Part shown: positions 37,900 through 40,874 of the stretch, in pieces
How the letters are laid out: each line of letters starts with the position of its first letter
Numbering within the stretch: the first letter of the stretch is position 1
Source: Gammaproteobacteria bacterium
GTDB taxonomy: Bacteria; Pseudomonadota; Gammaproteobacteria; Eutrophobiales; Eutrophobiaceae
Reading direction: 5' to 3'
DNA: 64,000 nucleotides
Assembly (NCBI GenBank): GCA_004297165.1
Contig: SCUJ01000006.1
Coordinates: 1,584,045-1,648,044, forward strand
Translations under genes and position numbers: made by a program
Notes under the pieces: generated by a model
Databases searched by the model: none
Told to the model about the DNA's origin: nothing
The model's input: the letters and a program-made list of their open reading frames with translations, nothing else

Positions 37900-38373
37900 A
37901 TGAGCAAGAAGAAACCCGGCGCCGTCTCGAACACCATCGTCCTCAATAAAAAGGCGGGGCACGATTTCTTCATCGAGGAGCGCCTGGAGGCTGGACTCGT
38001 TCTGGAGGGTTGGGAGGCCAAGAGCCTGCGCGCCGGCAAGGTGCAGATCCGGGACAGCTACATCCTGCTGAAGGACGGCGAGGCCTTTCTCTTCGGCGCG
38101 CTCATTACCCCGCTGCCCACGGCCTCGACCCACATTCATCCCGACTCCATGCGCAACCGCAAGCTGCTGCTGCATCAGCGTGAATTGAGCCGGCTCATCG
38201 GCGCCGTCGAACGCAAGGGTTACACCGTTGTGCCCACCGCCATGTACTGGAAGAAGGGCCGCGCCAAACTCGAGATCGGGCTCGCCAAGGGCAAGCAAAG
38301 CCATGACAAGCGGCAGGCGGAGAAAGAACGGGACTGGCAGCGGGAGAAACAGCGGCTGTTGAAGATACATTAA
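37900..38373 (+). CDS. smpB: SsrA-binding protein SmpB
   Basis: A 157-residue partner of tmRNA in trans-translation. Motifs: [57 protein letters not shown] and the lysine-rich C-terminal tail [31 protein letters not shown]. The length is typical. A TATAAT lies at 37865-37870, about 30 bases before the start. It sits next to ssrA, 99 bases before the mature tmRNA 5' end, as in E. coli. Confidence 0.97.
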
Positions 38374-38465: not shown

Positions 38466-38563
38466 GAGTTAAGGGGGCGCATTGGTTTCGACGTGGGTCA
38501 TGAAACCGGAAGGGCATGCCGAGGGGCAGAGCACCTCGTAAATCCAGCTGCAAAAATATAGTT

Positions 38564-38596
38564 GCCAACGACGACAACTACGCACTCGCTGCCTAA
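38564..38596 (+). other. tmRNA tag reading frame
   Basis: Resume codon GCC then AAC GAC GAC AAC TAC GCA CTC GCT GCC TAA, giving the proteolysis tag ANDDNYALAA. Its LAA end suits ClpXP recognition, and it differs from the E. coli tag (ANDENYALAA) by one residue. Confidence 0.9.
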
Positions 38597-38815
38597 ACCG
38601 CAGTAGATTGCCGTCTGCCTGACGTGTGCTTGTACGCTCAGATCCAGGCGTCGACCCATACAAGATCGCGATGAAGTCTGTCCGGGACGGATTCGTTAAA
38701 ACCTTACGGAATCGCTCGTTGTCTTTCCTGCCGCTCGGATAGCAACGGGTTAAACTCAAAGAGTCGGCTACGCATGTAGAACTGAAGGCCGAAGGCTTGC
38801 GGACGCGGGTTCGAT

Positions 38816-39086
38816 CAGTAAAAGGTCGCCTTTGCCCGTAAGGGTAAAGTGAAAAACGGGGCTCACATCGGTGAAACCTACTGTCTGAAGACTAGGGCAA
38901 CACCGAGGGGTAAGCAGAGGGCCAACCTCAGACTTGCCCTGTAGAGACTCATAGATCCACTGACCAGCATTAAGGCGAGTGGATACTAGGATTCACCGGC
39001 GAACATCCAGGTGAATAATACGCCCCGCATCCTGTAGACAGGATGAAGGTATAGTCCAGCCCGATTCGAAAGAACCGGAACAGCTG
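38816..39086 (+). mobile_element. Group I intron in the ssrA T-loop
   Basis: A 271-nt insertion between TTCGAT and TCCCGC. The 5' exon end CGAU can pair with GUCG in the intron (GGTCGCC), placing the required U-G pair at the splice site (P1). A CTTTGCCC-GTAA-GGGTAAAG hairpin with a GNRA loop fits P2. GACT in TAGAGACTCATAG and AGTC in GGTATAGTCCAG pair as P7. CATCCTG-TAGA-CAGGATG fits P8, and CCGATTC-GAAA-GAACCGG fits P9. The last intron base is G, as required. No open reading frame is inside. The subgroup cannot be assigned by eye. Confidence 0.88.
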
Positions 39087-39107
39087 TCCCGCCGCCTCCA
39101 CCAATAA

Positions 39108-39139
39108 CTGCCGGGTTGCAAGGCCCGGCAGACCTTTTT
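39108..39139 (+). terminator. Rho-independent terminator of ssrA
   Basis: CTGCCGGG (39108-39115) and CCCGGCAG (39124-39131) form a perfect 8-bp stem with loop TTGCAAGG, followed by ACC and TTTTT. It lies 4 bases after the encoded CCA, so the endonuclease gene downstream is not in the same transcript unless the terminator is bypassed. Confidence 0.85.
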
Positions 39140-39165: not shown

Positions 39166-39597
39166 ATGTCTCGTTACAAGAAAACCTGTTGCTTGACGGA
39201 AGCCCAGGCCGCTTATATTGCCGGGTTAATGGATGGTGAAGGAACGATTACACTTACAAAAAGACACCGTAATGAACACCGTCAAATCGTGGTCTCCATC
39301 AGTAATAACGAAAAGTGTCTGCTCGACTACGTTATATCAGTAGCTGGAATTGGAGTAATCTCCAAGAAATCCGATATGCGGTCGAAAAATATCAACTATT
39401 CCTACACAGTCACCAATCGGCAGGCATTAGAATTATTGTCGCAGATCAATCCGTATCTGATCGGCTATAAAAAGGAACGTGCGAATTATGTGCTGAAGCA
39501 CTATCTGGCTTTAACCCCGAGGAACGGAAAATATTCCAGAGAGCTATTAGAACGGAGAACTGATTTTATTGATTCGTTTTTCAGAATCCGGCCTTGA
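39166..39597 (+). CDS. LAGLIDADG homing endonuclease, outside the intron
   Basis: A 143-residue single-motif LAGLIDADG protein, so likely a homodimer: AAYIAGLMDGEGTITLTKR at about residues 13-31, then a family-typical beta fold (HRQIVVSISNNEKCLLDYVISVAGIGVISKKSDMR) and a C-terminal helical end. The acidic metal ligand positions (D and E in GLMDGEG) are intact. ATG 39166 has GGAG and AAGG sites just before it; the earlier GTG is less likely. The gene is AT-rich compared with neighbours, suggesting transfer. It lies 62 bases past the ssrA 3' end rather than inside the intron; cleavage of intronless ssrA alleles is the expected but unproven role. Confidence 0.85.
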   Translation: MSRYKKTCCLTEAQAAYIAGLMDGEGTITLTKRHRNEHRQIVVSISNNEKCLLDYVISVAGIGVISKKSDMRSKNINYSYTVTNRQALELLSQINPYLIGYKKERANYVLKHYLALTPRNGKYSRELLERRTDFIDSFFRIRP

Positions 39598-39709: not shown

Positions 39710-40834
39710 CTACTCCGACAGATCGTTCAACTCGTAACTGGTGCTGCGCCCGCCCGCCTCGGTTTTCCGCAGCACACGCCGCGTAAGCAAATCGTTGATG
39801 TCACGCAACGCAGTATCCGGTGAACACTTGACGATGGTTGCCCATTTGCTGCTGGTGAGCTTCCCCTCGAAGCCATCAAGCAGCTTGTTGAGCAACTTCA
39901 CCTGCCGCTCGTTCAGCGGCATCTCCGCCCAGCGCTGCCAGAAACGCGCCTTGGTCAACACGACGTTGAGTGTGTGCTGAGCCTGATCGACCGCGCGATG
40001 GAGGGCGTCGAGGAACCATGCAAACCACTCGGTGACATCCATCGATCGCTTCTGGGTCCGTTCCAGGATGTCGTAGTAGGCCTTGCGCTCCCGCTGGATC
40101 TGCGCCGACATACTGTAGAAACGCCGGGGACTGCCATCGGCGCGCGCCAGCAGCAAATCGCCGATAGCCCGCGCGATACGGCCATTGCCATCGTCGAACG
40201 GGTGGACGGTGACGAACCACAGATGACCGAGCCCGGCCTTGAGCAGCGGCGGTTCGTTCGATGCGCTATTCACCCAATCGAGGAACCGGCTAATTTCGGC
40301 CTCCAGACGGGCGGCGGGCGGGGCCTCAAAATGCACGCGCTGGCGGCCGATCGGGCCAGACACCACTTGCATCGTACCGCTGGCGTCGTCGCGCCAGCCA
40401 CCGACCTTGATCCTGGAGAGACCGGAGTAGCCGGTGTGAAACAGCGCGGCATGCCAGCCTAGCAGACGCTCCCGCGAGACCGGCGCATGACAGTTGGCGG
40501 TGGCGTCGAGCACCATTTCGACCACGCCTTCGACATGCCGATCCACCGGCGCGAGAGCGCCGATATCCACGCCCAGCCTGCGGGCGATGGACGAACGCAC
40601 GGATTCGACATCGAGCTGCTCACCCTCGATCTCGCTGGTCTTGACCACGTCCTCGGTGAGTGCGGCGAGGCTTGCCTGATCGCGCAGCGCCATGCCCACA
40701 TCAGCCAGACGCCCTATCAAGAGGCCCTGGTCGCGACTGACCTCGGCCATGGGTCCGGCCAGGGCCGCTAGGTCGAAGCGCCAGTTCGGCCAGTCATCAG
40801 CCTGCCAGATGTATTTATAATCGCCGCTATTCAT
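39710..40834 (-). CDS. Fic family protein with DUF4172-type N-terminal domain
   Basis: A 374-residue Fic (AMP-transferring) protein. The N-terminal domain has YKYIWQADDWPNWRF and the inhibitory-helix motif TSEIEG, fitting the (S/T)xxxE(G/N) rule for self-inhibition. The Fic core motif VTVHPFDDGNGRIARAIGDLLLAR is near residue 200. The C-terminal 110 residues look like a winged helix (SKWATIVKCSPDTALRDINDLLTRRVLRKTEAGGR). It would transfer AMP to hydroxyl side chains of target proteins. ATG 40834 is the start. It lies next to ssrA, a common insertion hotspot. A palindrome about 41 bases upstream may be its operator. Confidence 0.92.
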   Translation of the reverse strand: MNSGDYKYIWQADDWPNWRFDLAALAGPMAEVSRDQGLLIGRLADVGMALRDQASLAALTEDVVKTSEIEGEQLDVESVRSSIARRLGVDIGALAPVDRHVEGVVEMVLDATANCHAPVSRERLLGWHAALFHTGYSGLSRIKVGGWRDDASGTMQVVSGPIGRQRVHFEAPPAARLEAEISRFLDWVNSASNEPPLLKAGLGHLWFVTVHPFDDGNGRIARAIGDLLLARADGSPRRFYSMSAQIQRERKAYYDILERTQKRSMDVTEWFAWFLDALHRAVDQAQHTLNVVLTKARFWQRWAEMPLNERQVKLLNKLLDGFEGKLTSSKWATIVKCSPDTALRDINDLLTRRVLRKTEAGGRSTSYELNDLSE

Positions 40835-40874
40835 GCGGAGATTATGGGTCTCAATCTCCACATTGGCAAGTTAT

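What the first reader, a model, noticed from the sequence alone, without database searches (positions are those of the whole stretch)
38816..39086. Group I intron inside the T-loop of tmRNA
Joining TTCGAT and TCCCGC rebuilds a standard T-arm exactly. The insert has P1 with a U-G splice pair, P2, P7, P8 and P9 helices and a terminal G. It lacks any internal ORF and is only 271 nt. Function of the ribosome rescue RNA would therefore depend on splicing, potentially linking trans-translation to GTP availability.
Basis: partly seen in the sequence, partly recalled or inferred. Interest (0 to 1): 0.8.

Follow-up and report, generated by a model that had tools for sequence, protein, structure and literature searches.

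The report
tmRNA intron with a neighbouring homing endonuclease
The bacterium's ribosome-rescue RNA gene is interrupted by a small self-splicing intron, which is a known arrangement, but just beyond the gene sits a DNA-cutting "homing" enzyme gene whose relatives sit beside or inside this same RNA gene in 76 of 80 other genomes, which suggests how these enzyme-less introns spread.

Summary
A 271-nt group I intron (38816-39086) splits the T-loop of tmRNA (mature ends 38473 and 39103). Rfam's group I model covers it at E = 3.7e-8 (39 bits, below the 50-bit cut-off). ARAGORN finds the tmRNA only after the insert is removed. Twenty related introns support every helix except the conserved P1 and P7 by compensatory changes.

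The intron itself is not new. Group I introns in the tmRNA T-loop are published (883 known), and this is the common site, "position 7". The proposed GTP link has no evidence.

Homologues found by protein alone lie beside or inside tmRNA in 76 of 80 named loci, and in 16 of 16 carrier genomes of a 321-genome gammaproteobacterial sample. There, enzyme and intron co-occur (14 of 16; p = 4e-18), and the two intronless carriers have broken enzymes. Phages and two other phyla carry the enzyme inside the intron.

Best reading: a tmRNA-dedicated homing endonuclease spreads an ORF-less intron by collaborative homing, known before from a cyanophage. Cleavage and splicing remain untested.

The parts
37900..38373 (+). 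smpB, the protein partner of tmRNA (context)
   Evidence: Pfam SmpB 189.5 bits, E 3.6e-56
38473..38815 (+). tmRNA (ssrA) 5' exon, from the mature 5' end to T-loop nucleotide 6
   Evidence: RF00023 167 bits; ARAGORN on spliced DNA
38564..38596 (+). tag reading frame of tmRNA, ANDDNYALAA*
   Evidence: ARAGORN on the spliced sequence
38816..39086 (+). group I intron, 271 nt, ORF-less, T-loop position 7; has P7.1 and P7.2 (group IA-like)
   Evidence: RF00028 E 3.7e-8; pairing; covariation
38812..38828 (+). P1: exon CGAU with intron GUCG, U.G at the 5' splice site; identical in all 20 introns aligned
38857..39027 (+). P3 (CGGGGC/GCCCCG), outer helix of the core; P4 38868-38906 and P6 38908-38939 lie inside it
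   Evidence: covariation in P3, P4, P6
38946..39056 (+). P7 (GACU/AGUC), the guanosine-binding helix; P7.1 38956-38983, P7.2 38991-39016 and P8 39028-39045 lie between its strands
   Evidence: P7 invariant; P7.1, P7.2, P8 covary
39057..39086 (+). P9.0-like helix plus P9 and the terminal (omega) G
39087..39103 (+). tmRNA 3' exon TCCCGCCGCCTCCACCA (rest of the T-arm, acceptor strand, CCA)
39108..39131 (+). intrinsic terminator of tmRNA, followed by a T-rich tail
   Evidence: 10-pair stem, loop of 4, T tail
39166..39597 (+). free-standing single-motif LAGLIDADG homing endonuclease gene, 143 aa, outside the intron and 62 nt after the mature tmRNA end
   Evidence: Pfam LAGLIDADG_1 E 1.1e-6 and LAGLIDADG_3 E 1.3e-6; AlphaFold2 pLDDT 91.9 and Foldseek to I-CreI/I-MsoI; tmRNA linkage of homologues

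Best explanation
The locus is a two-part mobile unit on the tmRNA gene. [quoted passage not shown] Part two is a free-standing I-CreI-type LAGLIDADG endonuclease gene just after the tmRNA terminator. Most likely the enzyme, as a homodimer, cuts uninterrupted tmRNA genes at the naturally palindromic T-arm (GCGGGTTCGATTCCCGC). The intron splits that site in its own genome and protects it. When a cut, intronless tmRNA gene is repaired from this copy, the intron and the adjacent endonuclease gene are copied together: collaborative homing. Shown here: the intron, an intact gene with a LAGLIDADG fold, the dedicated link of the gene family to tmRNA, co-occurrence with the intron, and purifying selection. 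Inferred: splicing, the cut site, homing.
For: Intron. Endonuclease: Pfam LAGLIDADG, AF2 pLDDT 91.9 with Foldseek best hits I-CreI, I-MsoI, I-CvuI, LAGLIDADG-motif acid E25 kept in 54 of 55. Linkage: all 16 of 321 sampled class genomes with the gene have it at tmRNA; of 80 named loci found by protein alone, 76 lie at tmRNA: 46 downstream on the same strand with intron, 21 downstream convergent with intron, 2 inside the intron, 7 beside an intronless tmRNA. One significant copy per genome in 15 of 16 genomes; the 16th has one extra weak hit. Co-occurrence with the intron: 14 of 16 carriers against 6 of 305 non-carriers, Fisher p 4e-18. The two carriers with an intronless canonical T-arm (G050, G116) have broken genes. 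dN/dS 0.05-0.26 in close pairs. The same family sits inside the T-loop intron in phages (654-674 nt introns), Elusimicrobiota and Myxococcota.
Against: No cleavage or splicing data. Patescibacteria and some phages have full-length homologues beside intronless tmRNAs, so the intron is not always the protection; their T-arms differ from the canonical one. In L025 an uncut 26-nt copy of the intron-free tmRNA 3' end lies beside an intact endonuclease gene, so the site must reach further 5' or the enzyme is not active there. HEG distances follow tmRNA exon distances more than intron distances (partial r 0.44 against 0.18 in the same-strand set), which points to long co-residence rather than constant transfer. 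6 of 20 intron-bearing genomes lack a hit (2 of them keep N-terminal traces).
Confidence: 0.72

Rival explanations
1. The endonuclease gene is carried by integrative islands that use the tmRNA 3' end as attachment site; its place beside tmRNA reflects island traffic and not a homing target in tmRNA.
For: tmRNA genes are known island sites (PMC11915505 introduction). Displaced intron-free tmRNA 3' ends lie just after the gene in L025 and L035, with a 15-nt one in L068. G050 has two copies of the tmRNA 3' end with endonuclease remnant about 8.4 kb apart. G006 has an integrase-like ORF after its intronless tmRNA.
Against: Island cargo is diverse, whereas this one gene recurs at 34-190 bp from tmRNA in most loci of several phyla. 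It is tied to intron presence (p 4e-18), and the same family is found inside the intron. No displaced end occurs in the window.
Confidence: 0.12
2. The endonuclease homes on the tmRNA gene on its own (intronless homing, target at or near the tmRNA 3' end); the intron is an independent passenger that profits only by chance.
For: Endonuclease beside intronless tmRNA in 7 Patescibacteria-type or unplaced loci and in phages, including permuted tmRNAs.
Against: Strong co-occurrence with the intron in Gammaproteobacteria. Intact genes there always go with the intron, and those beside an intronless canonical T-arm are broken.
Confidence: 0.12
3. The neighbouring protein is an RNA maturase that helps the intron fold, not a homing enzyme.
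For: Some LAGLIDADG proteins act as maturases (own knowledge; the 2ab5 'mRNA maturase' chain is among weak sequence hits).
Against: Homologues occur beside intronless and permuted tmRNAs. The gene is often decayed while the intron stays intact (G345, G229, G221, G092). The LAGLIDADG-motif acidic residue is conserved.
Confidence: 0.04

Closest known systems
Group I introns at T-loop position 7 of tmRNA (Williams 2002; PMC11915505, 2025)
   Same: Same gene, same insertion point between T-loop nucleotides 6 and 7, U at -1, terminal G, similar length (mean 293 bp for founding sequences)
   Different: That survey counts only endonuclease genes inside the intron (36 of 883, 4.1%). Here, and in 67 of 80 homologous loci, the gene lies outside, just downstream of the tmRNA
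Collaborative homing of F-CphI and the psbA intron of cyanophage S-PM2 (Zeng 2009; PMC6083498)
   Same: [quoted passage not shown] the intron is thought to block self-cleavage
   Different: LAGLIDADG instead of Endo VII type enzyme, bacterial chromosomes instead of a phage, tmRNA instead of a protein gene, many phyla; cleavage not yet shown
I-CreI / I-MsoI single-motif LAGLIDADG endonucleases
   Same: Predicted fold (TM about 0.72) and weak sequence similarity; active as homodimers on pseudo-palindromic sites (own knowledge)
   Different: Those are encoded inside organellar rRNA introns; this one lies outside its intron and beside tmRNA
tmRNA introns with an internal endonuclease gene in P7.1 or P9 (PMC11915505)
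   Same: Family members inside the intron were found here in Elusimicrobiota and Myxococcota and, antisense, in phages
   Different: The window's intron has no insert; its endonuclease gene is downstream

Membership tests
Group I intron | Conserved core P3-P9 with P4-P6 and P7 | tested here: met
   All helices pair in the window; 94% of cells paired and covariation score 0.416 against 0.152 shuffled in 20 relatives
Group I intron | U.G wobble at the 5' splice site and terminal G | tested here: met
   U38815.G38825 in P1, invariant in 20 introns; last base G39086
Group I intron | Covariance model match (Rfam RF00028) | tested here: inconclusive
   Full-length match, E 3.7e-8, but 39.2 bits against a gathering score of 50
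Group I intron | Self-splicing with exogenous G | not testable with these tools
   Needs an in vitro assay; the C. botulinum tmRNA intron is reported self-splicing (PMC2729099)
T-loop tmRNA intron, position 7 | Excision rebuilds a standard tmRNA T-arm | tested here: met
   ARAGORN finds the full tmRNA only in the spliced sequence
LAGLIDADG homing endonuclease, I-CreI type | Family match with the acidic residue of the LAGLIDADG motif kept | tested here: met
   Pfam above cut-off; E25 in 54 of 55
LAGLIDADG homing endonuclease, I-CreI type | Single-motif LAGLIDADG fold | tested here: met
   AF2 pLDDT 91.9; Foldseek E about 1e-7 to I-CreI
LAGLIDADG homing endonuclease, I-CreI type | Homodimer; site-specific DNA cleavage | not testable with these tools
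   Needs a protein assay
Collaborative homing system | Free-standing endonuclease gene adjacent to an ORF-less intron in the target gene | tested here: met
   Window 39166-39597; 67 of 80 loci
Collaborative homing system | Endonuclease and intron inherited together | tested here: met
   Fisher p 4e-18; partial Mantel r 0.32, p 0.001
Collaborative homing system | Endonuclease cuts at the intron insertion site of intronless alleles and not the intron-bearing allele | not testable with these tools
   Only indirect: genes beside an intronless canonical T-arm are broken (L033, L038); L025 is a caveat

The most novel reading that the evidence does not exclude
One lineage of LAGLIDADG endonuclease is dedicated to tmRNA genes throughout bacteria and phages. 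It passes between a free-standing state (beside intron-bearing, intronless and permuted tmRNAs) and an intron-internal state at the same site. It would be a natural series showing how collaborative homing gives rise to composite mobile introns, with phages as possible carriers.
Probability: 0.5. Interest if true: 0.75.

Novelty: new variant of a known kind. Interest (0 to 1): 0.6.

Why it matters
The 2025 tmRNA survey found that only 4.1% of tmRNA introns carry an endonuclease gene, against 54% for archaeal rRNA introns. How the rest spread is unclear. Here 14 of 20 intron-bearing gammaproteobacterial genomes have the gene or its remains next to the tmRNA instead, and two more keep traces. If cleavage at the T-arm is shown, collaborative homing moves from a phage case to a widespread chromosomal system aimed at a central ribosome-rescue gene, with free-standing and intron-internal forms of one enzyme family at one site.

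Tried and rejected
Default Rfam cut-offs and ARAGORN alone do not report the intron or the split tmRNA; the relaxed search and splicing in silico were needed. An endonuclease gene inside the intron: none. Sampling class Bacilli (301 genomes) gave only four credible hits, too few for an association test there. Mantel tests gave only a modest HEG-intron signal beyond exon distance. The HEG tree has weak deep support, so direction of transfer and number of origins were not inferred. A displaced tmRNA 3' end in the window: none with up to 3 mismatches. PMC99078 (Williams 2002) is not held and was read only through citing papers. Seven paper searches found no report of endonuclease genes flanking tmRNA; subscription journals are not covered. 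P10 was not assigned: pairing of the guide with the 3' exon is weak.

Full report
1. Observation. The window holds a tmRNA gene with mature ends 38473 and 39103, split between T-loop nucleotides 6 and 7 by 271 nt (38816-39086). Rfam places tmRNA on 38481-38817 (167 bits) and, with a relaxed threshold, the whole group I model on 38789-39078 (39.2 bits, E 3.7e-8; Rfam's curated cut-off is 50). ARAGORN sees nothing in the raw DNA but a complete 360-nt tmRNA with tag ANDDNYALAA once the insert is removed. smpB lies just upstream.

2. Structure. The helices P1 (exon CGAU with GUCG, U.G at the splice site), P2, P3, P4, P5, P6, P6a, P7, P7.1, P7.2, P8, P9 and a P9.0-like helix ending at the terminal G all pair in the window. 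On an alignment of 20 related introns the structure keeps 94.0% of cells paired against 79.6% in shuffles, with double changes in 47 of 76 pairs (26.6 in shuffles) and a covariation score of 0.416 (0.152); no shuffle of 500 reaches these, and sliding the partners destroys the signal. P1 and P7 do not vary and so say nothing either way. P7.1 and P7.2 point to subgroup IA (own knowledge). No ORF of 60 aa or more overlaps the intron.

3. Known part. T-loop tmRNA introns were found by Williams in 2002 and number 883 unique sequences in the 2025 survey, most at position 7, in 21 phyla; only 36 (4.1%) carry an endonuclease gene inside (PMC11915505). The intron of C. botulinum tmRNA is reported self-splicing (PMC2729099). 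So the intron is a new member of a known kind. The suggested coupling to GTP supply has no evidence here.

4. What was missed. At 39166-39597, 62 nt after the mature tmRNA end and beyond an intrinsic terminator (39108-39131), lies an intact 143-aa LAGLIDADG protein. AlphaFold2 models it with pLDDT 91.9, and Foldseek's best solved matches are I-CreI, I-MsoI and I-CvuI, all single-motif homing endonucleases.

5. Linkage to tmRNA. A protein search of 321 genomes of the same class found homologues in 16. All 16 lie at tmRNA: 13 loci by cmscan plus the window, G229 from the intron and CCA read directly, and G071 across two contig ends. A scan of one genome per species for 84,980 species, again by protein only, gave 80 loci. 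With cmscan and a T-arm/CCA parser, 76 lie at a tmRNA gene: 46 have an intron-bearing tmRNA with the gene downstream on the same strand (Proteobacteria, Nitrospirota, one Anaerolineae bin), 21 the same but convergent (Bacillota), 2 have the gene inside the intron (Elusimicrobiota, Myxococcota), and 7 an intronless tmRNA (mainly Patescibacteria). Four show no tmRNA in the fetched stretch. Sixteen named genomes searched whole each have one strong copy; one of them has an additional weak hit.

6. Link to the intron. In the 321-genome sample a junction pattern finds the intron in 20 genomes; 14 of the 16 endonuclease carriers have it against 6 of the other 305 (Fisher p 4e-18). The two carriers without it (G050, G116) have a canonical uninterrupted T-arm and broken endonuclease genes. 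Five intron-bearing carriers have decayed genes, and two of the six intron-only genomes keep N-terminal traces. This mix of intact, decaying and lost genes is what the homing cycle predicts (own knowledge). Close pairs of intact genes have dN/dS of 0.05-0.26.

7. Phages. In viral contigs the relatives are more distant (41% identity or less), yet 13 of the 20 best lie at phage tmRNA genes, several of the permuted type. In L156, L157, L159, L160 and L184 the phage tmRNA has a T-loop intron of 654-674 nt with the endonuclease gene inside it on the opposite strand. In L167 the gene lies in the intervening segment of a permuted tmRNA, and in Sphingobium phage Lacusarx it overlaps ssrA. Other annotated phage hits (Braelyn, CcrRogue, 023Pt_psg01) show no tmRNA nearby, and most lower-ranked viral relatives do not either by a simple test.

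8. Mechanism. The simplest reading is collaborative homing as described for F-CphI and the psbA intron (PMC6083498, PMC3984707): the enzyme cuts uninterrupted tmRNA genes near the intron site, the intron shields the donor, and repair copies intron and neighbouring gene together. The T-arm is a natural inverted repeat, which suits a homodimeric enzyme. Steps shown: intron, enzyme fold, dedicated linkage, co-occurrence, selection. Steps inferred: splicing, cleavage, homing.

9. Limits. Patescibacteria and some phages keep full-length homologues beside intronless tmRNAs; their T-arms differ from GGGTTCGATTCCC, which could be resistance, but this was not tested. In L025 an uncut 26-nt copy of the intron-free 3' end lies beside an intact gene, so the site must extend further 5' or the enzyme is silent. 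Integrative islands at tmRNA are a real rival for part of the pattern. The HEG tree has weak deep support, and endonuclease distances follow exon distances more than intron distances.

10. Verdict. The finding as given is real and already of a known kind. The downstream endonuclease makes it a new variant: a chromosomal, multi-phylum candidate for collaborative homing aimed at tmRNA.

Noticed in passing
L001:1511-1748 (own genome, contig C4, about 125913-126150): A second group I intron (RF00028 66 bits, 238 nt) in the same genome, after the CAU anticodon of a tRNA; ARAGORN reads the spliced sequence as tRNA(cat).
   Followed up: partly
L156, L157, L159, L160, L184 (viral contigs): Phage tmRNA genes with 654-674-nt T-loop introns that hold the LAGLIDADG gene on the opposite strand, after the P7.2 5' strand.
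   Followed up: yes
L167; NC_041927.1 74324-75212 (L235): The endonuclease gene lies in the intervening segment of a permuted phage tmRNA (L167), and overlaps ssrA in Sphingobium phage Lacusarx.
   Followed up: partly
L025/L050 at +517, L035/L117 at +492, L068 at +519 from the mature tmRNA end: Displaced intron-free copies of the tmRNA 3' end (26 nt; 15 nt in L068) just after the endonuclease gene, like an att repeat of an island.
   Followed up: partly
G050: L038 and L041: Two copies of the tmRNA 3' end with the same endonuclease remnant, about 8.4 kb apart, probably the ends of an integrated island.
   Followed up: no
L047, L053, L057, L071, L084, L088, L118: Full-length endonuclease homologues beside intronless tmRNAs (mostly Patescibacteria) with T-arms that depart from the canonical sequence.
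   Followed up: partly
L064, L106, L110, L115: Homologues with no tmRNA in the fetched stretch; their target or context is unknown.
   Followed up: no
PHROG 5046 and phage records such as NC_041927.1, NC_055813.1: Members of this LAGLIDADG family are annotated as 'HNH endonuclease'.
   Followed up: no
window 39710-40861 (-): Fic/DUF4172 protein gene convergent to the endonuclease gene; no link to tmRNA was looked for.
   Followed up: no
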